Part shown: positions 5,311 to 59,707 of the stretch, piece by piece | Layout of the letters: each line of letters starts with the position of its first letter | Numbering within the stretch: position 1 is the stretch's first letter | Assembly: GCA_014871385.1 (NCBI GenBank) | Contig: CM026432.1 | Span: 3,312,150 to 3,376,149, forward strand | Reading direction: 5' to 3' | Origin: Ceratodon purpureus | Lineage: Eukaryota > Streptophyta > Bryopsida > Pseudoditrichales > Ditrichaceae | Length of the DNA stretch: 64,000 bases | Notes under the pieces: generated by a model | The model's database searches: none | Told to the model about the DNA's origin: nothing | What the model saw: the letters and a program-made list of their open reading frames with translations, nothing else | Position numbers and translations under genes: made by a program

Positions 5311-5334
5311 TTTGTCGAGATCAGACTGTGTTCG

Positions 5335-27428: not shown

Positions 27429-27581
27429 AGGCCCCGCCCCACGCATTTTGCAGCATCGCATCCAAAGTGTGCATATCGATCTGCAAGTTCATAGCATTCT
27501 CAGTTCTGCAGACAGTGTGATAGTTCTCAGTCGAAGTAGTTTGTTCAGAAACAGCTGCGCTTTCCCATCTCAGGAGCGACA

Positions 27582-29701: not shown

Positions 29702-29797
29702 CCACTTGGCAATGTCTCGTGTCTGCACAAAGAGAAGGCCTGGGGCGGATGAATGAAGAATTCTGGGCGAATAGAGCGCCCGACTTGGCTATATAAG
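29702..29797 (+). promoter_or_regulatory. LEA2 core promoter
   Basis: TATATAAG at 29,790-29,797 lies 164 bases before the ATG. CCACTTGGCAA at 29,702-29,712 is shared with the LEA1-type promoter. About 500 bases upstream (29,290-29,790) are strongly conserved with 40.57-41.07 kb and 54.96-55.46 kb. Confidence 0.6.
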
Positions 29798-29953
29798 CGG
29801 CCCCTTCCCCGAGCATTCCAAGCACATCGGATCGAGCGCCATATCATCTGTTTCTGCTGATTGCGCTACCCTCGACTGCATACTTGAAATATTGTGTGAT
29901 TTCGGTCGGAGGTTTGTCAGTGTCTTCTACACATTCCCATCTCAGGAGCGACA

Positions 29954-30413: not shown

Positions 30414-30590
30414 AGCATGGGAGAGACGCAATTCTGCCTCGGGAGATGCTGGACTTGATTGTAGTTTCCTCGGGTGTAGTGTGGCGGGGTATATATATTT
30501 GGTGATGTAAATGGTGTCATTGGGTCATGTACAGTTCGAGAACTCTGGAAATTTATGAAGATGCTATTTGCGTATTCCTGAAACAATGTA

Positions 30591-39484: not shown

Positions 39485-39939
39485 CTTTATACGAAGACAA
39501 CAACACACGAAAAGTGCGACAAATGATGATACAAGAACATAATCTTCATCACGCAACATCTGCTTCGCGCTACACTTAAATAACTCTTCAAGTGAGTGAA
39601 GAGATCTATCATGCGTAGTTGCAATTTGCTGCAGTAGGTGCACAATGCCAGCATACATCGACGAAAAGGACAACGAATGAAGAAATGACCGCACATGGAA
39701 ATCAGAACTTGTTTGTGAAGTATTCAACCCAGAAACCAGCTGAGAATACAATGAGTACTCCAGAAGTACGCAAACAGCATCTTCATATATTTCCAGAAAG
39801 CTGTACATGACCCCGAGACACCATTTACATCACCATTATATATATATACCCCGCCAAACTACACCCGAGCAAGCTACAACAATCAAGTCTAGCGTCTCTC
39901 TCGGCAGAGTTGCGTCCCTCGGCCCGTGCTCTACTCAGT

Positions 39940-40410
39940 CTAGTTCGTGAACTTGGACTCGTCAATCTCGCGTCCAGCAGCCTCGGCTGCCTCTCCGCCA
40001 GACATCTCGTTCGTGGCCGAGCCTCCCTTCTTGCCCATCTCCACGTACCCCTCGTGCCCCAGCTGCTCCGCGCGGGCCTGGCCTCCCTTGCTCCGCCCTG
40101 CATTGCACGTGATCATCAATATCAATCACTTACTACTCAGCCTCTGAAAGCACGACCATATGATCTACTGCTGCAGCTGCCATCGACAGGTTCTTCTCAA
40201 ACGTAGACACATCAACTCCTGTGACCACACTGCGGGGCTCAATGCAGAAAAAGAACAAGAGACGATCGAGACCTCGCAGAATACATGACATGACTTACCC
40301 TCCGCGAGGTGCTGCTGGGCCTCCAGGCTCTTGCCTCCGGTTCCTCCCGGCACCACCGTCTCGCCGGCAGCGGCGCGGGCGTCCAAGTCCTGGGTGTCCT
40401 TGCCCGTCAT
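39940..40410 (-). CDS. Group 1 (Em-type) LEA protein, copy LEA3
   Basis: Minus-strand exons 40,410-40,299 and 40,097-39,940 with a 201-bp intron give 89 residues. It has the single group 1 motif at 42-61 and the outer-type signature SATNEM and AAEAAG. The protein ends KFTN: where LEA2 and LEA6 have a final Gln codon, a 9-base replacement brings the stop one codon earlier, a harmless-looking change at the disordered C-terminus. Exon 1 is identical to that of its mirror partner LEA6. It lies in the diverged outer part of the left arm, 2 kb downstream of LEA4 on the same strand, with its own promoter. Confidence 0.92.
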
Positions 40411-40568
40411 TGTCGCTCCTGAGATGGGAATGTGTAGCTGACACTGACAAACCTCCGACCGGGAAAACTAACAATATTTCAAGTATGCAGTCGAGGGTAG
40501 CGCAATCAGAAGAAACAGATGATATGGAGCTCGATGCGATGTGCTTGGAATGCTCGGGGAAGGGGCCG

Positions 40569-40664
40569 CTTATATAGCCAAGTCGGGCGCTCTATTCGCC
40601 CAGAATTCTTCATTCATCCGCCCCAGGCCTTCTCTTCGTGCAGACACGAGACATTGCCAAGTGG
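40569..40664 (-). promoter_or_regulatory. LEA3 core promoter
   Basis: On the minus strand, TATATAAG (40,576-40,569) and upstream CCACTTGGCAA (40,664-40,654) match the LEA2-type arrangement. Confidence 0.6.
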
Positions 40665-40669
40665 TGGAG

Positions 40670-42372
40670 GCTGAGTTGCGACCTCCAAAGCGCGGGAGCA
40701 GCCCTCGATCCCACGCCCCAGTCGTCCCACATGTCATGCTTTACCAGGTGTTTGCATAAACTGGGTTGATTAGTAGCAGCACCCTTTACTGCTGCATCAT
40801 AATGTGGCCTTGCCATGGCCGCTGCCAAGAGAGCCATTTGTCTTGGACGACATGGAGCTGCAACTGTCACGCCGCTCGCACGATGCTGTAAATATGGACA
40901 TGCCCAGCAGCTATACACTTGGCGAAGATCACAGGGACCAACGCGGGGGCCGTTTAATTCTGGAAATCGGCGGCAGTCGATCTGTGTGCTGCAGTGATTC
41001 ACCAAGATCGGATCCTGGATCGACATGTTGTCGACAGGATTGGCAGGCTGACCACAACTAGTAGTCCATTGAAGTACCAGTATGCGTCCGTAGAATAGCT
41101 TAATCTGATGTAATTTATGGTATAGCTCGGAGAGTTGTACTCCGAGTTTCTGTTGTCTCCTCGCTGCCTCAGTGAAATTAAGGAGCGTTCATTTGTATGG
41201 CAGAAAGTAATGAGCAAGTAAATAGATGATGGTCGACTTGACTAAGAGTGATATCAGCGTGGCATGGCATAGCGGCCATACACTGACCGTGGCATAGAAG
41301 CTGGACGGCTTCGACGAGGTCCGGCGAGATCCGACCACAGTGTTTGTTTTGTCGATATGGTCGTGAGCAACGTCGGCCCGGGACGTAGTCGATGAAATGG
41401 AACCCAGAGGTATGATTTAATACGGTTTACTGCAGCAGCAATCTGGACGATGTATGGCGTAATGAGTTGCAGGTCACGAACGAGGTCAATAGCTCCCTGT
41501 CCCAGCAAGCAATATTAACCATTCTATTACCCTTCATCGTAGAAGAAGAAATCTCTTCTTTTTCCATTCGGCACAAATTATCAGGGCCTAAATACCAATC
41601 TGACGAAGCTCATCAGCATGTCTGTCTAGTATTCAATGCCAAATGTACAGTCGGAGTTTTCTCCGTTTCTCTGAAAGCAGGGTTCGAAAGACTTCATTGC
41701 GTAGAAAACTGCTAGAAAGCCGCTAGACATGTGAGAATGCAACGTGTAGACAAACACTGGAAATTCCTCCGTGAGTAAAAAGCCTGACGATTGCATATAT
41801 AGTCTGAACAAGCCACAAAACACATGTTTCAGTGTACATTGCAACCGTCCTGCTAGGGCAGTAGAGCTTCTGTTTCTGTCTACGGAGATCAAATCCCCAA
41901 TGCTAGATCTATTAACGGCGCAAGCTCAGACAACTTAGTGCTCGAAACGAATTAAACTACAAAATGTCTGCTGAACCGTCTTAAACTTGGAGCTGGCTTT
42001 TACACCGACATCGAAAACCGTTCAACGTCACCTGAACTTCACCATACAAATCAACTGCGCAGCTATTACAATACACTAGTCTATCATACCAATGCCGCTC
42101 ACAAACAGCGGACACATTCAACAGCCAATCCACAGCTCATATCCAAACCAATGTGTGCATCGAGACGAACCGATTCAAGTGAGGCGAAAATCGTAAGATT
42201 TCATATATACATCACAACGTCCATGTACAAAACATATCTTCATCGTCACTCCTTCCACCTCGAACTATCCAGTCTATCCTCCAACAACACTCAGTGCACA
42301 CTATCATGTCGACTCAACACATCAGCTTTCACTGATATTATGATCGCCATATTGCGAGCACATCCGCCCACT
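40670..42372. other. Left-arm spacer between LEA3 and LEA4
   Basis: This holds the conserved LEA2-type upstream block (to about 41,080) and then a faster-changing spacer. Compared with the right arm it shows many substitutions and indels around 41.2-42.2 kb. No gene. Confidence 0.65.
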
Positions 42373-42849
42373 CTACTCGTTGGTGAACTTGGACTCGTCA
42401 ATCTCGCGTCCAGCAGCATCGGCTGCCTCTCCGCCAGACATCTCGCTCGTGGCAGAGCCTCCCTTCTTGCCCATCTCCACGTACCCATCGTGTCCCAGCT
42501 GCTCGGCGCGGGCCTGCCCTCCCCTGCTCCGCCCTGCATTGCAATTTGCAGATGATCATCACCAAGACGGACGTACCGTCAAAACAAGACTTCAGCTTGT
42601 GAAAAGTTCACCACGGGTGCTGCCATGATCGACAAGTTCAAATGTAGACACACTGCCATTCCTCACCACATAAACACATCCACATGCGGAGAGCAGAACA
42701 GATATGAAACAAAGAGCACAAGATCGATATGGCTTACCCTCCGCGAGGTGTTGCTGGGCCTCCAGGCTCTTGCCTCCGGTTCCTCCCGGCACCACCGTCT
42801 CGCCGGCGGCGGCGCGGGCGTCCAAGTCCTGGGTGTCCTTGCCCGTCAT
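42373..42849 (-). CDS. Group 1 (Em-type) LEA protein, copy LEA4
   Basis: Minus-strand exons 42,849-42,738 and 42,533-42,373 with a 204-bp intron give 90 residues, identical in protein sequence to LEA5. The group 1 motif reads [20 protein letters not shown], with Asp in place of the Glu found in copies 1, 2, 3 and 6. The end is KFTNE, the inner type. Exon 1 differs from the mirror gene by one silent base (A at 42,775, T-equivalent at 53,252). That base marks the edge of the near-identical palindrome plateau. The gene is read outwards from the palindrome centre, head-to-head with LEA5 across about 10.3 kb. Confidence 0.93.
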
Positions 42850-43016
42850 TGTCGCTCCGGAGATGGGAAAGCGCAGCTGTTTCTCAACAGATTACTTCGA
42901 GTCACTGAGAAGTTAGAACTATCAAACTGTATGCAGAACTGAGGATGCTATGAACTTGCAGATCAATATGCAGACAAGTTTGGATGCGATGCTGCAAAAT
43001 GCGTGGGGCGGGGCCT

Positions 43017-43087
43017 TCTTATAGCCGGAGGAATTCCTGAATCATCCACATCCATTCGCCATTCGGAAACAGAAGGTTGCCAAGTGG
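43017..43087 (-). promoter_or_regulatory. LEA4 core promoter
   Basis: TATAAGA on the minus strand (43,023-43,017) and CCACTTGGCAA (43,087-43,077), as in LEA1. The block is identical to that of LEA5. Confidence 0.6.
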
Positions 43088-43405
43088 AAATCTGTGAGGG
43101 GGCAGACCAATATGGGAAACCCGTATTGTTGTTTTGCTAAACTCGCCCCACTTGTCATGCTGCATTCTAAGCTCAGCCCATTAACTAATAACCAGGTGTC
43201 TTAGTGTTCAAGTTGGGGGTAATTGAACGCAGATGGAAGGTACAGTCAGGTCTAGATTGGTTACGAGTTCTAGTGGAAACTTAAGGCAGTGTGTTGGACA
43301 AACTGTCAAATTTTGGAATGCAAGAACTTCCTCAAACTTTGAATGGATGTTGGAATTTCACAATGCATTGGAATGCTAGTGAAGGGTGGGTCTCTTTATT
43401 TTCCC

Positions 43406-43673
43406 CCTACAAGCGTGGCTCGGTAGCCAGGTTCGGTGGAGGCCAATTTTCTGCCCATTTCCGCTTTGGGGCCTTGGGGTCTTTTTTTGGTTTTTAAAAA
43501 ATAAAAAATAAATAAATAAATAAATTATAAAATTTGGGGCCGTAGGCCTCAAATTACCCAATGGAGCCCCCCGAGATCAGTAGGGCCCCATTCAAGGCAA
43601 ATAATAGGGGCAGAGATTTGCCCCCACCCCTCCTATCCCCTCCCGAACCTGGCCTCCGAGCCACGCTCGTAGG
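43406..43673. mobile_element. Small GC-ended MITE, left arm
   Basis: About 268 bp bounded by 30-bp inverted repeats with three mismatches, beginning CCTACAAGCGTGGCTCGG on the left and CCTACGAGCGTGGCTCGG on the right (reverse complement). No coding capacity and no clear target-site duplication. The superfamily is undetermined. The middle contains an (AAAT)n-like tract. Confidence 0.7.
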
Positions 43674-43814
43674 AGGTACTTAGACAGATCCGTAAAGGGT
43701 ATTCTCATATTACAGAATATTTCTCCTTTGCTTGTGAGAAGAAGATTCATGATTACTTATTATAGATAAAGTTTTGTGGATATGCTCTAAATTATTTTCT
43801 TTACCTACTACACT

Positions 43815-44425
43815 ATATTGTCACAAGTAGCTCTTAAATCGGAAGTCCGAGACCTATGAACGTGCACCGCCGAGGTTACCAACTTACCTGGGTGATATTG
43901 TATTTGGAGGTCAAAATAACTTGACTACTATTATGATTGGAAGAAAATTCCAAGAGAATTGAAGAGCCCTCACAAGATTAGGGATACAAATGGTGTAGAG
44001 TGTGTCCCTGCTTTATATACCCGTACCCTTGGTTTAATGCTCTTACTTCTTTAGGGCATCGCCAATGCTCCTTGGATATCATGACTATTGAAGTTGGTGA
44101 TGTGTTTCAAATGGTCTCTTTTTATTTTTGTAAAAATACGCTTACTACTAAAAACATTGACGTACTTGTTAAAATGCATTGGACTTTTCTTCCTATCAAT
44201 GGCTCCTTTGCCTACTAAATGCCTCTTAAACCGGTAGTCCCCGCATCAATGCTGAGGTTACCTCACTCTTTCCAAATTCGGAGTCAAAAAATCTTGACTA
44301 CTATTGTGATTCGTCAGAGCTCTGAGAGAGGTGGAGAGACCACATAAGATTAAAGTTCCAAATGGTGCAGAGTCTGTCCTCGCTTTATATATCCGGACTC
44401 TCAATTTAATATAACTTCAGATGTC
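43815..44425 (+). repeat. Diverged direct repeat, two units of roughly 200 bp
   Basis: Units near 43,820-44,035 and 44,225-44,420 share TTAAA(T/C)CGG(A/T)AGTCC, GAGGTTACC, CTTGACTACTATT(A/G)TGATT, AAATGGTG(T/C)AGAGT and a CTTTATATA(C/T)CCG TATA-like end. They are ordered copies of one sequence about 400 bases apart. A mirror copy lies in the right arm (51,602-52,212). Confidence 0.6.
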
Positions 44426-44912
44426 CTTCTTCATAGCATTTTCCGCTTCCTTTAAACAAATTATGAATATTTTTTTATTTATATGCTAGTCTTAGAAAAA
44501 AAATCCTTTGAGACCTTTCTTCACGAGGTGATACAATTTGACTTGATCCAAGGTCCAATATCATCTTCGGAAATGTGCAAGTCTTTGGTCTTCAATATAA
44601 TAGCATCCACTTCCATAATCTTCTCAAACTAAATCACTACATGATCCTTTAAGTGCCAAAAATTATTATTAGTTAGGAATATGAGTAGTATGATATCTAT
44701 AATATTCTAAAATTTATGTAAGAAATTTAAGCATACAATATTACAAATTAATCTTGAAAAATGAGGTGGACAAATTAATTGCATACCCTAGTCCAAAAGG
44801 TAGCTTCATTTACTCAATTACAAAGAATTGAATTTAAGATAGGTGACGTTGGAAATTTACATCCTTAACTACTCTCTTAAACCATGTCTCACCACTTTTC
44901 ATTGTGCTTTAA

Positions 44913-45740
44913 CCCCTCTAAAGCATGAACTCAACAACAACGGGTTGATTAGGGTCCAATCTTGGCCCGCATAAGTTGATTTTAATAGGATGATGTAATT
45001 TTGGTTATGTATTATCATATCTTTTTAACCAGACCATTCATGCTTCAAAATTCTTCATACTTTAGAAGATATTTACAGTCACAGTTTGAGAACACTATTT
45101 GGACATACTAAAATCTGCCCAAAACTACAGTATATGCTCAAAATGTGCCCAAAATCAATTAGATCATAGAAACTTGAAAAATTCACTAAAAATTGAGATC
45201 TTACCTTTTTTCAAGTTTTGTTCTTTGTACATGTAAATAAAATTTGAAGGCATGATCTCACAGCTCGGATTTCCAATCCAATATTTCTCGGTATGCCTTT
45301 TTTACTATCAAAGACCGGCCTTCATTTTTTGGATTTCATGATACCTCCATGTGAAAAAATCTTTAGACTCTATAGGTCGTACGAGGAAGAAAAGTAAATG
45401 GACGTATTCCTAAGCCACCTAGAAACAAGAATTTGAAGAGCCTCACATCAAATTTACTATTGAAATTGGTTTTCTTGGCTCACGAAACACTTCAAATCCA
45501 TTTTGCAACGAGGAAAAAAAAACTTTTTTTTTTTTTTTTCTAACTTTGAACATTACGATTTCACAAGCGGTAAGGAATTTGAATCTAAGATTTGGAGTCC
45601 ATATAAATGTACAAGTAAGGTAATAGATCCTACATTCATATTCCCTCAAAATACATCAAAACTTGAAAACTTTCACCTTGTGTTGAAAGAGTCTAATTTT
45701 GAAGGTTTTGGGCAATTTTGAGGCCTTTCAACTTTAGGGA
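44913..45740. mobile_element. TTAA-flanked TIR element, left arm
   Basis: Bounded by TTAA on both sides (44,909-44,912 and 45,741-45,744), with inverted ends CCCCTCTAAAG and TCCCTAAAG. Its right half resembles the element at 36,692-37,619. Length 828 bp and no transposase frame. Probably the same piggyBac-like family. Confidence 0.6.
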
Positions 45741-46321
45741 TTAAAGATACCTTAGCTATTGCAATAAGTTGAAATTTCTAAAGAGAAATCTAAATGTTTT
45801 TTAATTAAGGACCTTTCTTTTATTGTCTTGTATCCTCCTTCATATAGCAACAAGTGTCTCATAGTGAGATGGTTAAAAAGGAGAACCTTGGTGAGGAGGT
45901 TTTCTATATTAAATTTTTTGTTCTATGACCGCCTTGAATATGTTTCAAAGGGCATCTATTGTCTTTAATACTTATTTTAATAATGTGGTCAACAAATCTT
46001 ATTCTCCAAGGTATATTGAATAATGAGCTCTTGTTGACACCTAGAAAACACATTCTATTGCATTATATATGTTCATTTTTATCCGATGTAGGCGCCCACC
46101 ACTATGTTGTACCTTCTTGTTAGCATGCACTTTATTCAAATATATTATGACTTCTTTCTATGCATAGAAGCTAAATGTGCAATATAAATTAAATTAGATC
46201 GAACAATGAAAGTGCAATCTAATGAGAATTTAAGAAACTTCTTTTAACACTCAAGTTTCATCACCTCCTTGGATGCAATTTCTTCAAGTCAAAAAATATC
46301 TTCTTCCACTTGTAAAAATCA

Positions 46322-46555
46322 TTAAAAAAATTGAGGAGATGAAGGGAAATTTCTCATATCCATAATCCTACAACATAAATCTTCATTCAAGATTTTATCA
46401 TCACCTGGTATAAGAATTCCATCAATAGAAGCCTTGATTGTTCCAGAAAATTGGAATTGAGAGCTCTTGTTATCAAATGGAACAAATACAATGCTAGATG
46501 AATGGTTTTCAACCCGCTTTGCATTCTTCAAAACACACCTATAAAATATAATCAT
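46322..46555 (-). CDS. Unrecognised 77-residue open frame, left arm
   Basis: An ATG-started frame (MIIFYRCVLKNAKRVENH..., ending FPSSPQFF) of protein-like composition is repeated exactly in the right arm. No family is recognised. The phrase SGTIKASIDGILIPGDDK suggests a folded beta-rich piece. It may be one exon of a decayed gene or a transposon product. Identity between the arms reflects the recent homogenisation and says nothing about selection. Confidence 0.3.
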   Translation of the reverse strand: MIIFYRCVLKNAKRVENHSSSIVFVPFDNKSSQFQFSGTIKASIDGILIPGDDKILNEDLCCRIMDMRNFPSSPQFF

Positions 46556-47054
46556 TATTGGTATTTAGTTATTATACATGTATAAATCAACAACTTCATA
46601 ACTTTATTCTAATTTACAAAAGTAATCTTGAAGATGAAACAAAAACTTAGCTTACCTTATACAATGCTCACATAAACTTGGTAAGAGTGGTTTGTTTTTT
46701 GAGTTCTTCACAATTTGCCCCTTGAAATAATTCTTGTGCCGTGCTTGTACATGTCAAATTGTAATGCTTACAACCTAAAAAGACATCAGGAGGCGATTCC
46801 TAGTAAAATCCTTATTTCTACCGTTTGTTGGAACTCAAGTAGGCGGAACACATGTTGACCACATGGTCCTTGATGGGACGCTTTTATGCTGCAAGTTCCT
46901 CCTTTGTTCAACTTCTCTATGTATCTAATCTTCTAGTTTGGCCACCTAGTCTTTTCTATATTCACATCAAGTAATTCAAATTAATAGCATAGTACCATTA
47001 AAATAAAAAAATTAAGAAAATTTATCAATTATATTATTGTTTGATGTGAGCAGG

Positions 47055-47546
47055 ATGACGAGGGCTAAGAAAGACTTACCTACATTGAAGAAGCATTTTG
47101 GCTGCATTCCTTGCAGGAAATGCATCAAATGCTCACTTTAGTAGGCTGAGCATTTGGGATCTAACAATCACAACAAAGGCGTGTTGTGCTATTTGCTAAA
47201 GCACAAAATACCACTTGATGAGGTGAGACAACTTGCTTTTGAAACTATCATCTCTAGATCTTCTGATGAAGATTTGATCGATGTTTTTCGATCTCGTAGT
47301 GTGCCTATACCACTGTCTGTTAAACACATTGTATATGTACAACGTGTTAAAAAGACGTTGTTGATCAACCAATATGAAGAACTTAAATGCAATAGTCTTC
47401 TTGTTGAAAACGAAGACATTGTGGGTTTAGTTATATTGGATTTTTTTGACAAAAAAGATAGTGAGAAGCATTTTGACACGCTTTTCAATCTAACTAGGCA
47501 TTTTAGAATTGTAGCTAGATCAAAAAAGAAAAAAAATGAGGGTTGA
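47055..47546 (+). pseudogene. Decayed Cys-rich coding relic, left arm
   Basis: From an ATG at 47,055 one frame begins MTRAKKDLPTLKKHFGCIPC with a Cys cluster (CIPCRKCIKC). It is interrupted, then stays open from 47,154 for about 130 residues (GSNNHNKGVLCYLLKHKIPL to a Lys-rich end). The only in-frame start of the long part is a TTG, so it is not an independent gene. No family recognised; a transposable-element protein is possible. Confidence 0.4.
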
Positions 47547-47599
47547 TGTCATGCAAGGGTCGTGGATTTACAATGGTGTTTTTTATCATTATAGAGGTT

Positions 47600-48430
47600 A
47601 GGGTGGTTTGTGTTTTGAGTTCTATACCAATCTCTCCAGTTGTAACCACATTCTTTGACATTTGTTGATGTACTTCCTCAACTCATCAATGTTATTATCC
47701 TCATCCATATCATCAATATTATGAGCTATTTTCATAGCGTTAAATTCTGTTTTTTAAATCCTCAAATTTAAAATTCTGTGGTATTGAATCCTCAAATACT
47801 GAATCTTGAAATACTGAATCCAGGAATACTGAATTCTTGGTTACTAGCTGCATGGTTAAATCTTTTTTATCATTTTCATTAGCCTGAATTTGATAGAATG
47901 ACTCTTTATCAGAGTTTAGAATTTTAATGCTTGTTTATTATATTTGTTTCGTTTTCTTTGCATATTTTTTAACCTTAGTTTTAGGTATGTCAGATTCAAT
48001 TTTTTCATTTTCTTCCCTACGAAAAAATTATATCTGACATACGTAAAATTAAGGCTAAAAAATATGCAAAGAAAACGAAACAAATATAATAAACAAGCAT
48101 TAAAATTCTAAAATCTGATAAAGAGTCATTCTATCAAATTCAGGCTAATGAAAATGATAAAAAAGATTTAACCATGCAGCTAGTAACCAAGAATTCAGTA
48201 TTCCTGGATTCAGTATTTCAAGATTCAGTATTTGAGGATTCAATACCACAGAATTTTAAATTTGAGGATTTAAAAAACAGAATTTAACGCTATGAAAATA
48301 GCTCATAATATTGATGATATGGATGAGGATAATAACATTGATGAGTTGAGGAAGTACATCAACAAATGTCAAAGAATGTGGTTACAACTGGAGAGATTGG
48401 TATAGAACTCAAAACACAAACCACCCTAAC
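47600..48430. repeat. Palindrome centre with quasi-palindromic core
   Basis: Near the centre the arms stop being identical: mismatches cluster in 47,972-48,000 against 48,027-48,055, with another near 47,910. An unpaired loop of about 16 bases surrounds 48,013. On each arm, read outwards, the DNA looks like decayed coding sequence with a five-residue repeat (phrase DSVFQ/DSVFE, from a 15-bp unit repeated four times, 47,784-47,845 and its mirror). Confidence 0.8.
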
Positions 48431-48480
48431 CTCTATAATGATAAAAAACACCATTGTAAATCCACGACCCTTGCATGACA

Positions 48481-48972
48481 TCAACCCTCATTTTTTTTCT
48501 TTTTTGATCTAGCTACAATTCTAAAATGCCTAGTTAGATTGAAAAGCGTGTCAAAATGCTTCTCACTATCTTTTTTGTCAAAAAAATCCAATATAACTAA
48601 ACCCACAATGTCTTCGTTTTCAACAAGAAGACTATTGCATTTAAGTTCTTCATATTGGTTGATCAACAACGTCTTTTTAACACGTTGTACATATACAATG
48701 TGTTTAACAGACAGTGGTATAGGCACACTACGAGATCGAAAAACATCGATCAAATCTTCATCAGAAGATCTAGAGATGATAGTTTCAAAAGCAAGTTGTC
48801 TCACCTCATCAAGTGGTATTTTGTGCTTTAGCAAATAGCACAACACGCCTTTGTTGTGATTGTTAGATCCCAAATGCTCAGCCTACTAAAGTGAGCATTT
48901 GATGCATTTCCTGCAAGGAATGCAGCCAAAATGCTTCTTCAATGTAGGTAAGTCTTTCTTAGCCCTCGTCAT
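48481..48972 (-). pseudogene. Decayed Cys-rich coding relic, right arm
   Basis: Exact mirror of the relic at 47,055-47,546, identical over its 130-residue open part. Status and doubts are the same. Confidence 0.4.
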
Positions 48973-49471
48973 CCTGCTCACATCAAACAATAATATAATT
49001 GATAAATTTTCTTAATTTTTTTATTTTAATGGTACTATGCTATTAATTTGAATTACTTGATGTGAATATAGAAAAGACTAGGTGGCCAAACTAGAAGATT
49101 AGATACATAGAGAAGTTGAACAAAGGAGGAACTTGCAGCATAAAAGCGTCCCATCAAGGACCATGTGGTCAACATGTGTTCCGCCTACTTGAGTTCCAAC
49201 AAACGGTAGAAATAAGGATTTTACTAGGAATCGCCTCCTGATGTCTTTTTAGGTTGTAAGCATTACAATTTGACATGTACAAGCACGGCACAAGAATTAT
49301 TTCAAGGGGCAAATTGTGAAGAACTCAAAAAACAAACCACTCTTACCAAGTTTATGTGAGCATTGTATAAGGTAAGCTAAGTTTTTGTTTCATCTTCAAG
49401 ATTACTTTTGTAAATTAGAATAAAGTTATGAAGTTGTTGATTTATACATGTATAATAACTAAATACCAATA

Positions 49472-49705
49472 ATGATTATATTTTATAGGTGTGTTTTGAA
49501 GAATGCAAAGCGGGTTGAAAACCATTCATCTAGCATTGTATTTGTTCCATTTGATAACAAGAGCTCTCAATTCCAATTTTCTGGAACAATCAAGGCTTCT
49601 ATTGATGGAATTCTTATACCAGGTGATGATAAAATCTTGAATGAAGATTTATGTTGTAGGATTATGGATATGAGAAATTTCCCTTCATCTCCTCAATTTT
49701 TTTAA
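49472..49705 (+). CDS. Unrecognised 77-residue open frame, right arm
   Basis: Mirror copy of the frame at 46,322-46,555, identical in protein sequence. No recognised family; see that entry. Confidence 0.3.
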   Translation: MIIFYRCVLKNAKRVENHSSSIVFVPFDNKSSQFQFSGTIKASIDGILIPGDDKILNEDLCCRIMDMRNFPSSPQFF

Positions 49706-50286
49706 TGATTTTTACAAGTGGAAGAAGATATTTTTTGACTTGAAGAAATTGCATCCAAGGAGGTGATGAAACTTGAGTGTTAAAAGAAGTTTCTTAAATT
49801 CTCATTAGATTGCACTTTCATTGTTCGATCTAATTTAATTTATATTGCACATTTAGCTTCTATGCATAGAAAGAAGTCATAATATATTTGAATAAAGTGC
49901 ATGCTAACAAGAAGGTACAACATAGTGGTGGGCGCCTACATCGGATAAAAATGAACATATATAATGCAATAGAATGTGTTTTCTAGGTGTCAACAAGAGC
50001 TCATTATTCAATATACCTTGGAGAATAAGATTTGTTGACCACATTATTAAAATAAGTATTAAAGACAATAGATGCCCTTTGAAACATATTCAAGGCGGTC
50101 ATAGAACAAAAAATTTAATATAGAAAACCTCCTCACCAAGGTTCTCCTTTTTAACCATCTCACTATGAGACACTTGTTGCTATATGAAGGAGGATACAAG
50201 ACAATAAAAGAAAGGTCCTTAATTAAAAAACATTTAGATTTCTCTTTAGAAATTTCAACTTATTGCAATAGCTAAGGTATCTTTAA

Positions 50287-51114
50287 TCCCTAAAGTTGAA
50301 AGGCCTCAAAATTGCCCAAAACCTTCAAAATTAGACTCTTTCAACACAAGGTGAAAGTTTTCAAGTTTTGATGTATTTTGAGGGAATATGAATGTAGGAT
50401 CTATTACCTTACTTGTACATTTATATGGACTCCAAATCTTAGATTCAAATTCCTTACCGCTTGTGAAATCGTAATGTTCAAAGTTAGAAAAAAAAAAAAA
50501 AAAGTTTTTTTTTCCTCGTTGCAAAATGGATTTGAAGTGTTTCGTGAGCCAAGAAAACCAATTTCAATAGTAAATTTGATGTGAGGCTCTTCAAATTCTT
50601 GTTTCTAGGTGGCTTAGGAATACGTCCATTTACTTTTCTTCCTCATACGACCTATAGAGTCTAAAGATTTTTTCACATGGAGGTATCATGAAATCCAAAA
50701 AATGAAGGCCGGTCTTTGATAGTAAAAAAGGCATACCGAGAAATATTGGATTGGAAATCCGAGCTGTGAGATCATGCCTTCAAATTTTATTTACATGTAC
50801 AAAGAACAAAACTTGAAAAAAGGTAAGATCTCAATTTTTAGTGAATTTTTCAAGTTTCTATGATCTAATTGATTTTGGGCACATTTTGAGCATATACTGT
50901 AGTTTTGGGCAGATTTTAGTATGTCCAAATAGTGTTCTCAAACTGTGACTGTAAATATCTTCTAAAGTATGAAGAATTTTGAAGCATGAATGGTCTGGTT
51001 AAAAAGATATGATAATACATAACCAAAATTACATCATCCTATTAAAATCAACTTATGCGGGCCAAGATTGGACCCTAATCAACCCGTTGTTGTTGAGTTC
51101 ATGCTTTAGAGGGG
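50287..51114. mobile_element. TTAA-flanked TIR element, right arm
   Basis: Mirror copy of the element at 44,913-45,740. One base differs between the arms inside it (45,382 against 50,645), the only mismatch I found in the plateau parts I compared. Confidence 0.6.
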
Positions 51115-52353
51115 TTAAAGCACAATGAAAAGTGGTGAGACATGGTTTAAGAGAGTAGTTAAGGATGTAAATTTCCAACGTCACCTATCTTAAATTCAAT
51201 TCTTTGTAATTGAGTAAATGAAGCTACCTTTTGGACTAGGGTATGCAATTAATTTGTCCACCTCATTTTTCAAGATTAATTTGTAATATTGTATGCTTAA
51301 ATTTCTTACATAAATTTTAGAATATTATAGATATCATACTACTCATATTCCTAACTAATAATAATTTTTGGCACTTAAAGGATCATGTAGTGATTTAGTT
51401 TGAGAAGATTATGGAAGTGGATGCTATTATATTGAAGACCAAAGACTTGCACATTTCCGAAGATGATATTGGACCTTGGATCAAGTCAAATTGTATCACC
51501 TCGTGAAGAAAGGTCTCAAAGGATTTTTTTTCTAAGACTAGCATATAAATAAAAAAATATTCATAATTTGTTTAAAGGAAGCGGAAAATGCTATGAAGAA
51601 GGACATCTGAAGTTATATTAAATTGAGAGTCCGGATATATAAAGCGAGGACAGACTCTGCACCATTTGGAACTTTAATCTTATGTGGTCTCTCCACCTCT
51701 CTCAGAGCTCTGACGAATCACAATAGTAGTCAAGATTTTTTGACTCCGAATTTGGAAAGAGTGAGGTAACCTCAGCATTGATGCGGGGACTACCGGTTTA
51801 AGAGGCATTTAGTAGGCAAAGGAGCCATTGATAGGAAGAAAAGTCCAATGCATTTTAACAAGTACGTCAATGTTTTTAGTAGTAAGCGTATTTTTACAAA
51901 AATAAAAAGAGACCATTTGAAACACATCACCAACTTCAATAGTCATGATATCCAAGGAGCATTGGCGATGCCCTAAAGAAGTAAGAGCATTAAACCAAGG
52001 GTACGGGTATATAAAGCAGGGACACACTCTACACCATTTGTATCCCTAATCTTGTGAGGGCTCTTCAATTCTCTTGGAATTTTCTTCCAATCATAATAGT
52101 AGTCAAGTTATTTTGACCTCCAAATACAATATCACCCAGGTAAGTTGGTAACCTCGGCGGTGCACGTTCATAGGTCTCGGACTTCCGATTTAAGAGCTAC
52201 TTGTGACAATATAGTGTAGTAGGTAAAGAAAATAATTTAGAGCATATCCACAAAACTTTATCTATAATAAGTAATCATGAATCTTCTTCTCACAAGCAAA
52301 GGAGAAATATTCTGTAATATGAGAATACCCTTTACGGATCTGTCTAAGTACCT

Positions 52354-52621
52354 CCTACGAGCGTGGCTCGGAGGCCAGGTTCGGGAGGGGATAGGAGGGG
52401 TGGGGGCAAATCTCTGCCCCTATTATTTGCCTTGAATGGGGCCCTACTGATCTCGGGGGGCTCCATTGGGTAATTTGAGGCCTACGGCCCCAAATTTTAT
52501 AATTTATTTATTTATTTATTTTTTATTTTTTAAAAACCAAAAAAAGACCCCAAGGCCCCAAAGCGGAAATGGGCAGAAAATTGGCCTCCACCGAACCTGG
52601 CTACCGAGCCACGCTTGTAGG
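52354..52621. mobile_element. Small GC-ended MITE, right arm
   Basis: Mirror copy of the MITE at 43,406-43,673. Confidence 0.7.
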
Positions 52622-52939
52622 GGGAAAATAAAGAGACCCACCCTTCACTAGCATTCCAATGCATTGTGAAATTCCAACATCCATTCAAAGTTTGAGGAAG
52701 TTCTTGCATTCCAAAATTTGACAGTTTGTCCAACACACTGCCTTAAGTTTCCACTAGAACTCGTAACCAATCTAGACCTGACTGTACCTTCCATCTGCGT
52801 TCAATTACCCCCAACTTGAACACTAAGACACCTGGTTATTAGTTAATGGGCTGAGCTTAGAATGCAGCATGACAAGTGGGGCGAGTTTAGCAAAACAACA
52901 ATACGGGTTTCCCATATTGGTCTGCCCCCTCACAGATTT

Positions 52940-53010
52940 CCACTTGGCAACCTTCTGTTTCCGAATGGCGAATGGATGTGGATGATTCAGGAATTCCTCC
53001 GGCTATAAGA
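52940..53010 (+). promoter_or_regulatory. LEA5 core promoter
   Basis: CCACTTGGCAA at 52,940-52,950 and TATAAGA at 53,004-53,010. The block is nearly the same as upstream of LEA1 and identical to LEA4. Confidence 0.6.
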
Positions 53011-53177
53011 AGGCCCCGCCCCACGCATTTTGCAGCATCGCATCCAAACTTGTCTGCATATTGATCTGCAAGTTCATAGCATCCTCAGTTCTGCATACAG
53101 TTTGATAGTTCTAACTTCTCAGTGACTCGAAGTAATCTGTTGAGAAACAGCTGCGCTTTCCCATCTCCGGAGCGACA

Positions 53178-53654
53178 ATGACGGGCAAGGACACCCAGGA
53201 CTTGGACGCCCGCGCCGCCGCCGGCGAGACGGTGGTGCCGGGAGGAACCGGTGGCAAGAGCCTGGAGGCCCAGCAACACCTCGCGGAGGGTAAGCCATAT
53301 CGATCTTGTGCTCTTTGTTTCAAATCTGTTCTGCTCTCCGCATGTGGATGTGTTCATGTGTTGAGGAATGGCAATGTGTCTACATTTGAACTTGTCGATC
53401 ATGGCAGCACCTGTGGTGAACTTTTCACAAGCTGAAGTCTTGTTTTGACGGTACGTGCGTCTTGGTGATGATCGTCTGCAAATTGTAATGCAGGGCGGAG
53501 CAGGGGAGGGCAGGCCCGCGCCGAGCAGCTGGGACACGATGGGTACGTGGAGATGGGCAAGAAGGGAGGCTCTGCCACGAGCGAGATGTCTGGCGGAGAG
53601 GCAGCCGATGCTGCTGGACGCGAGATTGACGAGTCCAAGTTCACCAACGAGTAG
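53178..53654 (+). CDS. Group 1 (Em-type) LEA protein, copy LEA5
   Basis: Exons 53,178-53,289 and 53,494-53,654 with a 204-bp intron give 90 residues, the same protein as LEA4: hydrophilic, one group 1 motif at 42-61 with HDGY, and the KFTNE end. Exon 2 is identical in DNA to LEA4 although the intron differs at about eight of 204 positions, so exon 2 is either constrained or converted separately. The gene faces outwards on the right arm with LEA6 downstream. Expression in drying or ABA-treated tissue is expected from the family. Confidence 0.93.
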
Positions 53655-55365
53655 AGTGGGCGGATGTGCTCGCAGTATGGCGATCATAATAGTGAAAGCT
53701 GATGTGTTGAGTCGACATGATAGTGTGCACTGAGTGTTGTTTGAGGATAGACTGGATAGTTTGAGGTGGAAGGCGTGACCGTGAAGATATGTTTTGTACA
53801 TGGACGTTGTGATGTATATATGAAATCTTACGATTTTCGCCTCACTTGAATCGGTTCGTCTCGATGCACACATTGGTTTGGATATTTGTCAATGTGGATT
53901 TGCTGTTGAATGTCTGCTGTTTGTGAGCGGCATTGGTATGATAGACTTGTGTATTGTAATAGCTGCGCAGTTGATCTGTTTGGTGAAGTTGAGGAGACGT
54001 TGAACAGTTTTCGATGTTGGTGTAGAAGCCAACTCCAAGTTTAAGACGGTTCAGCAGACATTGAGTAAACTTTTAAATCGTCTCTAGGCTAAGCTGTCTA
54101 CAGCTTGCGCCGTTTATCTGGCATTGGAGATTAGTTCTCCGCAGACAGGAACAAAAGCTCTACTGTCCTAGCAGGAGGGTTGCAATGTACCGTGACATGT
54201 GTTTCGTGGCTTTTACAGAATGTATATGCAACCGTCAGGCTTTCTACTCTCGCGGAGGAATTTCCACTATTTGTCAATGTACACGTTGCACTCTCACATG
54301 TCTAGCGGGTTTTTAGCAGTTCTCTAACCAATGAAGTCATTCGAACCCTGCTCTCGGAGAAATGGAGAAAACTCCTATTGAACATTTGGCATTGAATACT
54401 AGAAAGACATACTGATGAGCTTTGTCGAATTGGTACTTAAGCCCTGATAATATGTGCCGAATGGAAAAATGAGAGATTTCATCTTCGACGATGAAGGGTA
54501 ATGGGATCGCCAATTGCTTGCTGTGACATCGAGCTATTGATCTCGTGCGTGAGTGACAGAGTTGATGACCTGCAACTCCTAATGCCATATATTGTGCAGA
54601 TTGTTGCTGCAGTAAACCGTATGATCATACCTCTGGGTTCCATTTCATTGACTACGTCCCGGGCCGACTTTGCTCACGACCATATTGACAAAACAAACAC
54701 TGTGGTCGGATCTCGTCGGATCTCGTCGAAGCCGTCCAGCTTCTATGCCACGGTCAGTGTATGGCCGCTATGCCATGCCACGCTGATATCACTCTTAGTC
54801 TAAGTCGGCCATCATCTATTTACTTGCTCATTACTTTCTGCCATACAAATGAACGCTCCTTAATTTCACTGGGGCACCGAGAAGACAACAGAAACTCGGA
54901 GTACAACTCTCCGAGCTATACCATAAATTACATCAGATTAAGCTATTCTACGGACGCATACTGGTACTTCAATGGACTACTAGTTGTGGTCAGCCTGCCA
55001 ATCCTGTCGACAACATGTCGATCCAGGATCCGATCTTGGTGAATCACTGCAGCACACAGATCGACTGCCGCCGATTTCCAGAATTAAACGGCCCCCGCGT
55101 TGGTCCCTGTGATCTTCGCCAAGTGTATAGCTGCTGGGCATGTCCATATTTACAGCATCGTGCGAGCGGCGTGACAGTTGCAGCTCCATGTCGTCCAAGA
55201 CAAATGGCTCTCATGGCAGCGGCCATGGCAAGGCCACATTATGATGCAGCAGTAAAGGGTTCTGCTAATCAACCCAGTTTATGCAAACACCCGGTAAAGC
55301 ATGACATGTGGGACGACTGGAACGTGGGATCGAGGACTGCTCCCGCGCTTTGGAGGTCGCAACTC
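53655..55365. other. Right-arm spacer between LEA5 and LEA6
   Basis: Homologous to the left-arm spacer and to 28.05-29.7 kb, with clear divergence around 53.9-54.9 kb. From about 54,960 it holds the conserved upstream block of the LEA2-type promoter. No gene. Confidence 0.65.
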
Positions 55366-55373
55366 AGCCTCCA

Positions 55374-55469
55374 CCACTTGGCAATGTCTCGTGTCTGCAC
55401 GAAGAGAAGGCCTGGGGCGGATGAATGAAGAATTCTGGGCGAATAGAGCGCCCGACTTGGCTATATAAG
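55374..55469 (+). promoter_or_regulatory. LEA6 core promoter
   Basis: CCACTTGGCAA at 55,374-55,384 and TATATAAG at 55,462-55,469, as in LEA2 and LEA3. Confidence 0.6.
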
Positions 55470-55625
55470 CGGCCCCTTCCCCGAGCATTCCAAGCACATC
55501 GCATCGAGCTCCATATCATCTGTTTCTTCTGATTGCGCTACCCTCGACTGCATACTTGAAATATTGTTAGTTTTCGGTCGGAGGTTTGTCAGTGTCAGCT
55601 ACACATTCCCATCTCAGGAGCGACA

Positions 55626-56099
55626 ATGACGGGCAAGGACACCCAGGACTTGGACGCCCGCGCCGCTGCCGGCGAGACGGTGGTGCCGGGAGGAACCGGA
55701 GGCAAGAGCCTGGAGGCCCAGCAGCACCTCGCGGAGGGTAAGTCATGTCATGTATTCTGCGAGGTTTCGATCGTCTCTTGTTCCTTTTCTGCATTGAGCC
55801 CCGCAGTGTGGTCACAGGAGTTGATGTGTCTACGTTTGAGAAGAACCTGTCGATGGCAGCTGCAGCAGTAGATCATATGGTCGTGCTTTCAGACGCTGAG
55901 TAGTGAGTGATTGATATTGATGATCACGTGCAATGCAGGGCGGAGCAAGGGAGGCCAGGCCCGCGCGGAGCAGCTGGGGCACGAGGGGTACGTGGAGATG
56001 GGCAAGAAGGGAGGCTTGGCCACGAACGAGATGTCTGGCGGAGAGGCAGCCGAGGCTGCAGGACGCGAGATTGACGAGTCCAAGTTCACGAACCAGTAG
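55626..56099 (+). CDS. Group 1 (Em-type) LEA protein, copy LEA6
   Basis: Exons 55,626-55,737 and 55,939-56,099 with a 201-bp intron give 90 residues of the outer type, ending KFTNQ. The group 1 motif at 42-61 is intact. Residue 64 is Leu where the other copies have Ser (GGLATNEM), a private change just after the motif. A G-box-like CACGTG lies in the intron 10 bases before exon 2 and is present also in LEA3. It is the mirror partner of LEA3 and lies in the diverged outer zone of the palindrome. Confidence 0.93.
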
Positions 56100-56545
56100 A
56101 GCACGGGCCTAGGGACGCACCTCTGCCCTGGGATACGCTAGTCGACTTGATTGTTGTAGCTTGCTCGGGTATATTGTGGCGGGGTATATATGTATATGGT
56201 GATGTAAATGGTGTCTCGGGGTCATGTACAGTTTGACAACTCTGGAAATATATGAAGATGCTGTTTGCGTACGTCTGGAGTACTCATTGTATTCTCAGCT
56301 GGTATCTGGGTTGAATATTTCACAAACAAGTTCTAAATTCCATGCGCGGTTATTTCTTCATTTCTTTTTCTTTGCGTCGATGTATGCTGGCATTGTGCAC
56401 CTACTGCAGCAAATTGCAACTCCGCATGATAGATTTCCTGACTCACCTCAAGAGTGATCAGAGTGTAGCGCGGAATAGATGTTTCGTGATGATTATAGGT
56501 TATGAGTATCATCATTTGTCGCCGTATTGCTGTGGTTTGTTGCTT

Positions 56546-57390
56546 TGAATATCGTGCTGTTCGTCTACTGCTTACCTTGGCATTATAATCACGACAATGT
56601 AGAGAACTGTTATTTGTCCACTCATGATGTTTTTCGTATGTCCTAAACAGGAATTTAGTTTGTAACGATTATCTTCATGTTTTACTCACTTAGAATTTTC
56701 AATGCGTAGGATTTTGGAGGTTCAATCTGAACGTAGATGAATTGGAATGATGGATTTATGAGGAAGAATGTAATTAATTCAGTTCTGATAAATTGTAGAG
56801 AGTGTTGATGCAGAACAGATGTACAATAGCATGCGAAGGCATAAAACTAATGTTGGACACTTTTCAAAGGAAAGTAGAGATTTTTGTAGTCAGACAATTC
56901 AGTAAAACTAGAAAATCAAATTCTATGATCCTCATCACTTTAAATGTTATCTTCTTCCAAGTCAAACATGAATTGCATAACATGTAGCTTGTGATCACGA
57001 TTGGAAATACCTTCACTAATCAGTGTACAGGAAATTCACATGTAGCGTTGTAATTTGAAGTTTTTATTTGTAATCTAATACTACGAATCGGAATATTGTT
57101 TTACAGTTGAAGATAGAGCTTTGATCTTGTAACCGTGTAGGGCAACGTAATGAACCATCGCCTCCATCAGGCATGTCTGCAATAGTTATTCCTGCAATAT
57201 GGTTGCAACCTTTAGGGCATGATCAAAGCACATTAAACACGAATTCAAGTGAACGGACATAGCTTAGTCCTCACTTTTAATCCGAAAATTCATAGCAAAT
57301 TCCAGGATGCAAAAGCGTTTCCTAAAGACGACGACTCTTGTCGGAAAGGGTAAATTTGCCTACCTGCGGTTGGAACATTAACAGATCATG
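56546..57390. other. Intergenic DNA right of the palindrome
   Basis: No gene is seen. The last few hundred bases are the likely 3' UTR of the minus-strand bilin reductase gene. Confidence 0.5.
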
Positions 57391-59707
57391 TCATAGTGTT
57401 GCTCCCGGGAAAAGGAAGTCCTTCGTGAAGCGCGTGCTCCACTGCATCAGTAAGGGAAAGATGAAGGTTCAACACAACGAAAATAAGCGATACTTCAAAG
57501 GGCAAGGAAGGATATCTCGTTCAAGTTGCATAATATCTCAATGTAAAAGATTACTGGCCATCAAGTTGTATCCACCCAGGTGGACACTTCTTTCTAAAAG
57601 ATGTAGAAAAAAGACGTGTTCCTCAAAAGTAGAGTGACGCTTCGGTTAACGTACATGACACTGGTTCAGAAGTACTCCAATCTTCTAGAGCTTAGTTCCA
57701 AGGATATATTACCTCAGTGCCGAAATATGTATTGAAGAGTTTGATTGCAGGATCCCTCTCAGCATTATATTGGTCATAAGCGTCCTGACGTGATTGGACA
57801 TACGCCATGGCGTCTGGGTCCTCGTTGCCTTCGGCATTATTCAAAGCCTTGAGATAGATGTCTACATACTCAAGATACACTTCCCATAAGCGTCCAGTTG
57901 GTACGTGCAGGGTAGGCTCTTTGGCACCGAGGCTGGATCGATAGAAGACCAAGTACTTCGAGAAAAACTGAGTCTCATCGAAGAACTTGCTTGACATATG
58001 ACCACATTTTTCACGGATGCGTTCATATACAGGTGCAAGCATACTGGTATGTCGCTCTAGATACTCCGGTTCTTGAGTTAGAGGTTGGAAATCAACGACG
58101 CATAGGATTTTGTTGCTCCCAAAGGATAGCAGATCAATACCTAGCAATGGTAGATCGTACCTGCGGCCAAAACTCAGCTTAGAATCTACACTCTGCACAG
58201 AGTTGAGGTTAATAGGAATTAGAGACTACTTGCGCTGAATTCTTCAAGAGCAAAAATTACAAAGAGATAGTATACGCTTGCAACTTAGAATAGGCTGTAA
58301 GAGCATGGAACGAACTTGGGATCAGGGTACAGAAGGCTATTGAATGCTTGACCAGCAGCACCGCCATCGAAGTAGGTAAATCGTACTCTCCGCACTCTGT
58401 CTCCAGATAACAGCCAATTGTGCACCCTTGCTTTTCTCGCTTTCTGAACGCGATATTCAGGCAACAGGTCCACAGCTCGCAATCCTGGTACCTTTTCTTT
58501 AAGTGTAACCCAGAAGTGATCCATGTATGCTCCATAGAGAAGATTTACATCAGGACCTTCGATTGATGACCCCATCTCTGTCCCTGGAAGACACTGCAAC
58601 GCAATTCAATCGTAACCTCGGCGCCAACAAGATTCGGACATTTAACAAACCTTAATTGCGTCAATGTGGAACTGATCTCAACAAGATGAACATGACTTTT
58701 ACCAGACTCAGAAACATTTCCAGAACCCGTATCCACATCATAATGCCTTATGGTTGTTTTCTGACAAAATATGCACCAGGAGCCATGGAAGACAGAAGTG
58801 ACTGATTCGCTTCAACTGTGAAAAGTGTACATCCAAATCTCTTGGAGACTGGCTCCTGGCAAAACCAACCTAGGAATGATAGAGAAAATGCTAGAACTCA
58901 TAACCATTTCCTCTCGCAACCATTTACACAGACTGGATGGCAAACCTCAAGGCCCAAGACCTTCACCACGGAACATCAGCCCAAAACCACCAACCAAATT
59001 CCCTTAATCACTCTGATTGTCTTGGTAACCCTAAATTCTGTCTCGACACAACCAGGATATGGCTCAAACTACAGACCACCGCTTCTACATAACTCTCCTA
59101 CCGATCACTTCTGCTCGTCACTCGCGAACACCGCATCAATCATCGTCTCCACACCTAATGCCACGTCCTACCACCATCCACAATTCCCTTCGAACCCACA
59201 CGACACCAACAAACAGTCCACACGACGATCGCAAATGCCTCCCAACAATCACAAACATTCCAACGACACTCGTCTTCTTGGTGGCAATCAAGAAGCGAAA
59301 AGAACCTTCTAGAAGGGCTTCCAACTTCGTCTGCAGCGAAACCTCGGATCTAGTGGTAGTATCCAGAATTGCCAAACACGGTTAACCTCCACCACACTCA
59401 TCCACTAAATTCTAAGCTCCAAAACCAATCCTGCGCAGCCAAGAAAGCTGATGCCCCATACCTCTAATGGGTCAGGCACTTCCTGATCGTGGTGCACAGC
59501 TGATGATACTCCCCCCGAACCATCTCCTCGCTCCGCAGCAACATTACCAGACGTTCTCAACCTGGCATTCCGAGCTGAACAGGGTGGAAGTCGCAAACCA
59601 ACCTTGAACTTCACTCTCGCAGACTGGATGCCCTTACAAGGAACGAACAAAGAACCACCAGAAGTGAAATGCTCCGGACCCCGCACATGGAGCACGCAAC
59701 ATGCCAT
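57391..59707 (-). CDS. Ferredoxin-dependent bilin reductase, PebA/PUBS type (four exons)
   Basis: These plastid enzymes reduce biliverdin with electrons from ferredoxin to make linear-tetrapyrrole chromophores. Minus-strand exons: 59,707-59,462; 58,593-58,316; 58,160-57,713; 57,441-57,391; introns GT-AG with phases 0, 2, 0; 340 residues. Residues 1-about 60 look like a transit peptide. The catalytic fold is marked by FNSLLYPDPKYDLPLLGID (166-184) with the conserved Asp184, VVDFQPLTQ, the FFSKYLVFYR segment, the YDQYNAERDPAIKLFNTYFG block that resembles PebA more than HY2, and the short last exon WSTRFTKDFLFPG. The moss phycourobilin synthase belongs to this clade, so that is the likeliest role; a 15,16-dihydrobiliverdin-forming activity is the alternative. 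The exon 1 to exon 2 join is supported by phase only. Confidence 0.85.

What the first reader, a model, noticed from the sequence alone, without database searches (positions are those of the whole stretch)
39485..56545. 17-kb near-spacerless palindrome carrying stress genes in a plant nucleus
Mirror coordinates sum to 96,027 across the inner arms, and both arms encode the same frames on opposite strands. Arms of about 8.5 kb with almost no spacer are rare in assembled plant chromosomes because such structures are unstable. Here the arms carry functional-looking LEA genes reading outwards.
Basis: seen in the sequence. Interest (0 to 1): 0.85.

Follow-up and report, generated by a model that had tools for sequence, protein, structure and literature searches.

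The report
Two-age palindrome of moss LEA genes
A 17-kb stretch of a plant (probably fire moss) chromosome really is a mirror image of itself carrying four drought-protection genes, and its halves match almost perfectly only in the inner 5 kb, which points to an old inverted gene duplication whose middle was recently copied from one side to the other.

Summary
Window 39488-56551 is an inverted repeat with 8.5-kb arms meeting at 48013/48014 around a 14-nt loop. Each arm has two intact two-exon group 1 LEA (Em, LEA_5) genes reading outwards; a third such unit lies at 27.2-30.6 kb.

The outer arms (39488-42775) are an older inverted duplication, 13.5% diverged in a non-coding stretch. The core (42776-47971) has 2 mismatches in 5196 bp. 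The hairpin stem at the exact centre has 5 in 35. The step from diverged to identical falls inside an Em exon.

Best reading: two old inverted LEA units, then a recent event that copied the inner part of one arm onto the other. This was either hairpin-primed template switching resolved by recombination in the Em gene (slightly preferred), or arm-to-arm gene conversion in an old palindrome. A simple fold-back artefact fits poorly, because the outer arms, flanks and centre differ, but no reads were available. The genome (362.5 Mb, 13 large contigs, one of 110.5 Mb) fits haploid Ceratodon purpureus; that identification is inferred. The kind of structure is known; this is an unusual member.

The parts
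39488..48013 (-). left arm (L) of the palindrome; its LEA genes read leftwards
   Evidence: self BLAST
48014..56551 (+). right arm (R); its LEA genes read rightwards
42776..47971 (.). near-identical core, left copy (2 mismatches with R in 5196 bp: 45382 C/T and 47914 G/T)
48056..53251 (.). near-identical core, right copy
47972..48055 (.). central imperfect hairpin: stem of 35 bp with 5 mismatches, loop of 14 nt (48007-48020); no other match in the own genome at E up to 10 in a capped first look
39940..40410 (-). LEA_5/Em gene La, exons 40410-40299 and 40097-39940, 89 aa, open
42373..42849 (-). LEA_5/Em gene Lb, exons 42849-42738 and 42533-42373, 90 aa; the step from diverged to identical (42775/42776) lies in exon 1
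53178..53654 (+). LEA_5/Em gene Rb, exons 53178-53289 and 53494-53654, 90 aa; same protein as Lb, one synonymous difference
55626..56099 (+). LEA_5/Em gene Ra, exons 55626-55737 and 55939-56099, 90 aa
27201..30580 (+). third LEA unit (T), homologous to L 39761-43244; genes Tb (27582-28050) and Ta (profile matches 29957-30073 and 30258-30401)
44908..45744 (.). fragment of a dispersed repeat in the core (scored copies elsewhere mostly 79-84% identical); mirror copy at 50283-51119
46725..47595 (.). fragment of a second dispersed repeat (84-86% to copies on C13, C7 and C2 that span it); mirror copy at 48432-49302

Best explanation
This is a real, two-age palindrome. Step 1 (shown by divergence): a unit with two Em genes was duplicated in inverted orientation long ago, giving L and R; a third, older unit T lies nearby. 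Step 2 (shown by the sharp step in identity): much later the inner 5.2 kb of one arm was copied onto the other. Step 3 (inferred, my preferred mechanism): DNA synthesis stalled or broke at an imperfect hairpin, now the centre at 47972-48055. The 3' end folded back, primed on its own strand and copied outwards through the spacer into the first Em gene of one unit. It then recombined with the matching Em gene of the inverted partner unit, which fixed the copy in place. The stem mismatches are then the original hairpin's own, and the step inside Em exon 1 is the recombination joint. The effect is two head-out pairs of intact Em genes separated by about 9.5 kb of symmetrical DNA in which no gene was recognised; an effect on LEA dosage is inferred only.
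For: The core has 2 mismatches in 5196 bp against 63 in 468 in outer non-coding DNA (Fisher p = 2e-67) and 174 in 3428 in the outer bins as a whole (p = 8e-68). The step lies between 42775 and 42776 in Em exon 1. The mismatches reappear at the exact centre, 5 of 35 (p = 2e-10 against the core), on both sides of a 14-nt loop, as fold-back priming on an imperfect hairpin predicts. The joint lies inside the unit shared with T, whose homology to L runs to 43244, as the recombination step requires. Imperfect hairpins of this grade (at least 30 of 36 paired, loop up to 20) exist here as possible starting points: 1 other in the 64-kb window, 3 in 85.6 kb of 21 other loci, none in 2 Mb of Markov sequence. 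In yeast, inverted junctions arise at pre-existing interrupted inverted repeats, mostly 40-80 bp in all, and are integrated by homologous recombination (PMC10766183, abstract and passages); the hairpin here is 84 bp. [quoted passage not shown]
Against: Stem divergence (5/35) is like that of the outer non-coding bin (63/468; p = 0.80), which arm-to-arm conversion in an old palindrome explains without a second coincidence; against the outer bins as a whole it is somewhat high (p = 0.03). One of the two core mismatches (47914) lies 58 bp from the stem, with about a 2% chance if the two are placed at random. No other copy of the central hairpin was found in the genome, so its state before the event cannot be seen. 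The yeast repeats have short arms (2-14 bp), unlike this longer imperfect stem. The assembly itself is unverified.
Confidence: 0.42

Rival explanations
1. Old spacerless palindrome homogenised by arm-to-arm gene conversion: the whole 17 kb formed at once when the LEA units were inverted-duplicated, the arms drifted to about 13%, and one recent conversion tract of about 5.1-5.2 kb reset the inner arms, stopping short of the hairpin tip, where the arms cannot pair.
For: Stem divergence is like outer non-coding divergence (p = 0.80) and differs from the core (p = 2e-10). If 47914 counts as old too, 6 of 93 near the centre remain compatible with the outer non-coding bin (p = 0.08) and with the outer bins as a whole (p = 0.48). 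Conversion between palindrome arms is documented in primates and in the willow W chromosome (PMC3403216, PMC7023750, passages).
Against: It needs a near-spacerless 8.5-kb-arm palindrome to have survived long enough for 13% divergence without central deletion; long, similar arms with a short or absent spacer carry the higher risk of instability (PMC7999016, passages). It needs one long tract that happens to end within about 100 bp of the centre.
Confidence: 0.35
2. Assembly or library artefact: a fold-back read or mis-join duplicated the spacer in inverted orientation and the assembler bridged into the real right LEA unit through the similar Em gene.
For: The core is almost identical, and the step falls in a stretch where L and R are similar, where a false overlap could form. 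Fold-back reads occur at about 0.55-0.6% in nanopore genomic DNA and can tangle assembly graphs (PMC12870357, passages). No reads were available here. If the host is Ceratodon, a review table lists its data as Illumina PE150 plus Hi-C (PMC13120521, passage); short reads alone could not resolve such arms, although the 1.4-Mb figure in the same row, which I take for an N50, suggests long reads.
Against: The central stem differs by five substitutions without indels and the core by two, whereas a fold-back read would give two readings of one molecule. Outer arms differ by 0-18% per 200-column bin, and the flanks are unrelated. No near-identical third copy of the core was listed in the genome searches; the best other match was 93% over about 400 bp, and first looks are capped. 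If this is haploid fire moss, mixed haplotypes are excluded. PMC12870357 saw virtually no fold-backs in its PacBio HiFi sample (three PacBio samples in all). Consensus polishing could nevertheless have made the core look more alike than it is.
Confidence: 0.13
3. A foldback or other palindromic transposon inserted between two LEA units.
For: The core holds fragments of two dispersed repeats.
Against: The near-identical stretch begins inside an Em exon rather than at a repeat end. The two repeat fragments are internal and only about 79-86% identical to most scored copies elsewhere. No other copy of the central DNA was found. Homology at the outer ends fades over several bins (5%, 6%, 18%, then none) rather than at sharp termini.
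Confidence: 0.03

Closest known systems
Sex-chromosome palindromes with arm-to-arm gene conversion (primate Y/X; Salix purpurea W.P1/W.P2)
   Same: Large inverted repeats carrying gene copies, with tracts of very high arm identity next to more diverged tracts.
   Different: Those have larger arms (14-73 kb in willow; averages of 73 kb in rhesus to 344 kb in human) and a kilobase spacer in W.P1 (2.6 kb in the text, 3586 bp in the table; PMC7023750 and PMC3403216, passages), on sex chromosomes. Here the arms are 8.5 kb, the loop is 14 nt, and the locus is not on the 110.5-Mb contig.
Hairpin/snap-back palindromic duplication and ODIRA-type inverted copy number variants (yeast, human)
   Same: Inverted copy joined at a short interrupted inverted repeat and resolved by homologous recombination.
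   Different: ODIRA gives interstitial inverted triplications with two such junctions and an included origin (PMC10766183 passages). Here there is one inverted junction and one apparent homologous joint, and the repeat arms are longer and imperfect.
Tandem LEA/Em gene clusters
   Same: Two-exon LEA_5 genes in local duplicates; in this genome C3, C13, C2 and C5 also hold LEA_5 matches at two or more sites within 100 kb.
   Different: In those four clusters every listed match is on one strand; the C12 cluster is the only one of five with both orientations (a list of 40 matches).

Membership tests
Long DNA palindrome (inverted repeat with little or no spacer) | two arms of high identity in inverted orientation with a short or absent spacer | tested here: met
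   97.0% over 17136 columns; loop 14 nt
Palindrome with arm-to-arm gene conversion | arm identity higher than the age of the duplication predicts, in a bounded tract | tested here: met
   core 2/5196 against outer 63/468 or 174/3428; copying by a fold-back event would give the same picture
Palindrome with arm-to-arm gene conversion | orthologous arms in a relative carry their own fixed differences while arms agree within each genome | not testable with these tools
   no second moss genome at hand; the own genome 'has no relatives here'
Snap-back / hairpin-primed inverted duplication | junction at a short interrupted inverted repeat that keeps its own mismatches | tested here: met
   84-bp hairpin, 5 of 35 stem mismatches, core perfect for 57 bp beyond it and with 2 mismatches in 5196 bp; an unconverted tip would look the same
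Snap-back / hairpin-primed inverted duplication | the interrupted repeat pre-existed the event | tested here: inconclusive
   no other genomic copy of the centre found
ODIRA inverted triplication | inverted interstitial triplication with two inverted junctions | tested here: not met
   the core was found twice, not three times, in the genome searches
Group 1 LEA (LEA_5, PF00477, Em) | PF00477 match above the curated cut-off and intact frame | tested here: met
   four of four exons of La and Lb above 40 bits; twelve of twelve exon matches of the six window genes above cut-off; five of six genes translated intact; the script's start pattern missed Ta, which is seen as two exon matches only
Group 1 LEA (LEA_5, PF00477, Em) | desiccation- or ABA-induced expression | not testable with these tools
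   no expression data

The most novel reading that the evidence does not exclude
An autosomal plant palindrome caught shortly after a one-step, hairpin-primed template switch that was resolved by homologous recombination inside a stress gene. In a moss with active homologous recombination, inverted LEA pairs would then act as recurrent traps that rebuild near-perfect palindromes and keep the gene copies alike without sex-chromosome linkage.
Probability: 0.3. Interest if true: 0.6.

Novelty: new member of a known kind. Interest (0 to 1): 0.4.

Why it matters
Long palindromes with almost no spacer are unstable in model organisms, and the plant example read here (willow W) is on a sex chromosome and has a kilobase spacer. 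A palindrome whose outer arms, core and hairpin tip each keep a separate divergence gives a readable record of how such structures are made or renewed. If the host is haploid fire moss, a segregation or mutation-accumulation test is simple. It also suggests a route by which desiccation genes multiply and stay alike.

Tried and rejected
Chance symmetry: rejected. Palindromic transposon: held unlikely, see rivals. Ancestral single-copy version of the core elsewhere: none found for the central 238 bp or for 47600-47960. A partial copy at C12:3435682-3436423 covers window 46253-46658 (92.6%) and 46733-47073 (86.0%) but does not reach the centre, so it decides nothing. Pfam on two core frames (47145-47546 and 42943-43137): no family; the other core frames were not searched. 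Rfam on the whole window: no match at gathering scores. Ceratodon genome paper (Carey et al. 2021): not held under two identifiers, so the read type and isolate are not verified. Other Em clusters compared for recent duplication: C2 copies 94%, C3 copies 82-90%, C13 copies 83%; the pair L030/L034 overlaps the same locus and is not a comparison. Ages are only indicative: with recalled rates of 5e-9 to 9.4e-9 per site per year, the core is 20-38 thousand years old (95% limits 2-139 thousand) and the outer non-coding bin 8-15 million. The outer non-coding bin used in the tests is one chosen stretch, the most diverged of the seven outer bins; one search gives the outer bins together. In print: ten searches listed no paper whose title or shown abstract concerns this locus; the search for Ceratodon with palindrome gave 2 papers, of which one was read in passages and the other seen in the listing only. 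That mosses often carry inverted gene pairs, and that they recombine very actively, is recalled and was not confirmed by any search.

Full report
Observation. The window was aligned to its own reverse complement. The top match covers 39488-56551, 17136 columns at 97.0%. The half alignment has 8309 identities, 187 mismatches and 72 gap columns in 8568 columns. The centre is a hairpin with a 14-nt loop at 48007-48020.

Layers. Between L 42776 and L 47971 there are 2 mismatches in 5196 positions (45382 and 47914). Just outside, 9 mismatches fall in 42541-42775. The outer non-coding bin 41475-41951 differs at 63 of 468 positions; the seven outer bins together differ at 174 of 3428. At the centre, 5 of 35 stem positions differ. 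Fisher tests: stem against core p = 2e-10; stem against the outer non-coding bin p = 0.80 and against all outer bins p = 0.03; core against the outer non-coding bin p = 2e-67. Counting 48007/48020 as stem (6 of 36) changes little. The arms therefore carry three zones: old outer, young core, and an old-looking tip. Against a narrow tip: 47914 is also a mismatch, only 58 bp from the stem.

Genes. Each arm has two Em genes of two exons matching PF00477 LEA_5; 8 of 8 exons of the four arm genes are above the cut-off in the genome search. They read outwards, La and Lb on minus, Ra and Rb on plus. Lb and Rb encode the same protein and differ by one synonymous change; La ends one codon earlier than the other four translated genes. 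A third unit T at 27201-30580 has two more genes. T is the outgroup: in the three most diverged bins between the genes L-T and R-T differ by 42-47% (barely alignable) against 12-14% for L-R. Homology between T and L ends at L 43244, 469 bp inside the core, so the step at 42775/42776 lies within the repeated unit and, by the gene model, in exon 1 of Lb/Rb.

The spacer. No gene was recognised in the core, though only two of its frames were searched in Pfam. It contains pieces of two dispersed repeats: 44908-45744, with 40 of 3466 candidates scored and most scored copies at 79-84% identity; and 46725-47595, with copies spanning it on C13, C7 and C2 at 84-86%. Both arms carry the same pieces, so copying came after the insertions. 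No other copy of the central DNA was found in 151 contigs at the sensitivity of the search. No near-identical third copy of the core was listed; the best other match was 93% over about 400 bp. First looks are capped, so this is not proof.

Host. G000 has 362.5 Mb in 151 contigs. C6 is 110.5 Mb; C1, C2, C3, C4, C5, C7, C11, C12 and C13 are 16.5-29.0 Mb; C14 is 0.15 Mb; C8-C10, whose lengths were not seen, have matches at positions up to 9.5-16 Mb. So there are 13 large contigs. Ceratodon purpureus has a genome of about 360 Mb with U and V chromosomes over 100 Mb each (PMC8000587, passages); PMC13120521 (passages) gives 358 and 349.5 Mb for its two isolates, neither exactly this size, and lists the data as Illumina plus Hi-C. 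The match is good but the species is inferred. If right, the sequenced plant is a haploid gametophyte, so the arms cannot be two alleles (established biology, not tested).

Artefact or real. A simple fold-back read would give arms identical to the tip, the same outer arms, and no further partner sequence. Here the outer arms and the flanks differ and the tip has five substitutions without indels. A compound artefact remains possible: fold-back plus a false join through the Em gene, or polishing that evened out the core. I give it 0.13.

Mechanism. Two copying mechanisms fit. In the first, a 3' end folds back at an imperfect hairpin, copies 5.2 kb outwards and recombines into the inverted partner unit. 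This predicts mismatches exactly in the stem, identity beyond it, and a joint inside the shared unit. Natural hairpins of this grade are present: 1 other in the window and 3 in 85.6 kb of 21 other loci, none in 2 Mb of Markov sequence. The parallel in yeast is close (PMC10766183, abstract and passages; PMC7999016, passages), although its repeats have shorter arms. In the second, an old palindrome was reset by conversion up to its tip. This explains why tip and outer non-coding DNA are alike in divergence, but it needs a near-spacerless palindrome to persist for a long time and a tract that ends at the tip. Only a relative's sequence can separate them.

Comparison. The Salix W palindromes are the nearest plant case read (PMC7023750, passages). 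They are larger, with a kilobase spacer in W.P1, and sit on a sex chromosome. Among the five LEA_5 clusters of this genome with matches at two or more sites within 100 kb, only the one on C12 has both orientations. The structure is a new member of a known kind, with an uncommonly clear two-age record.

Noticed in passing
40478-41059 (L), 54982-55560 (R), about 29293-29888 (T): A block of about 400-600 bp upstream of the 'a' Em gene is very conserved between L and T (7 of 397 differences in 40478-40877), more so than synonymous sites of the Lb/Tb pair (8 of 64), while intergenic DNA further out is barely alignable. Either a constrained promoter/5' leader or a separate conversion between units. 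It overlaps an open frame of about 150-190 aa; the L copy of that frame has no Pfam match.
   Followed up: partly
G000 C5:10248924-10249376 and C5:10328436-10328888: Two LEA_5 loci 79.5 kb apart with identical scores for both exons (the first exon below cut-off): a very recent duplication or an assembly duplicate.
   Followed up: no
L013 1480-2491 and 7641-8652 (C7:1357479-1358490 and 1363640-1364651): Two identical 1012-bp direct repeats flanking about 5 kb with a long open frame; looks like a young LTR retrotransposon. The repeat family found in the palindrome core overlaps its terminal repeat but runs about 270 bp past one end of it, so the relation is unclear.
   Followed up: partly
57692-58225 (-): Ferredoxin-dependent bilin reductase frame (PF05996) just outside the right arm.
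   Followed up: no
16902-18443 (+): Exostosin GT47 gene frame (PF03016).
   Followed up: no
5311-5697 (+): Open frame that looks by eye like chloroplast CP12 (recalled motif, no family search made).
   Followed up: no
14484-14565: Another imperfect hairpin, 82 bp self-complementary at 93%.
   Followed up: no
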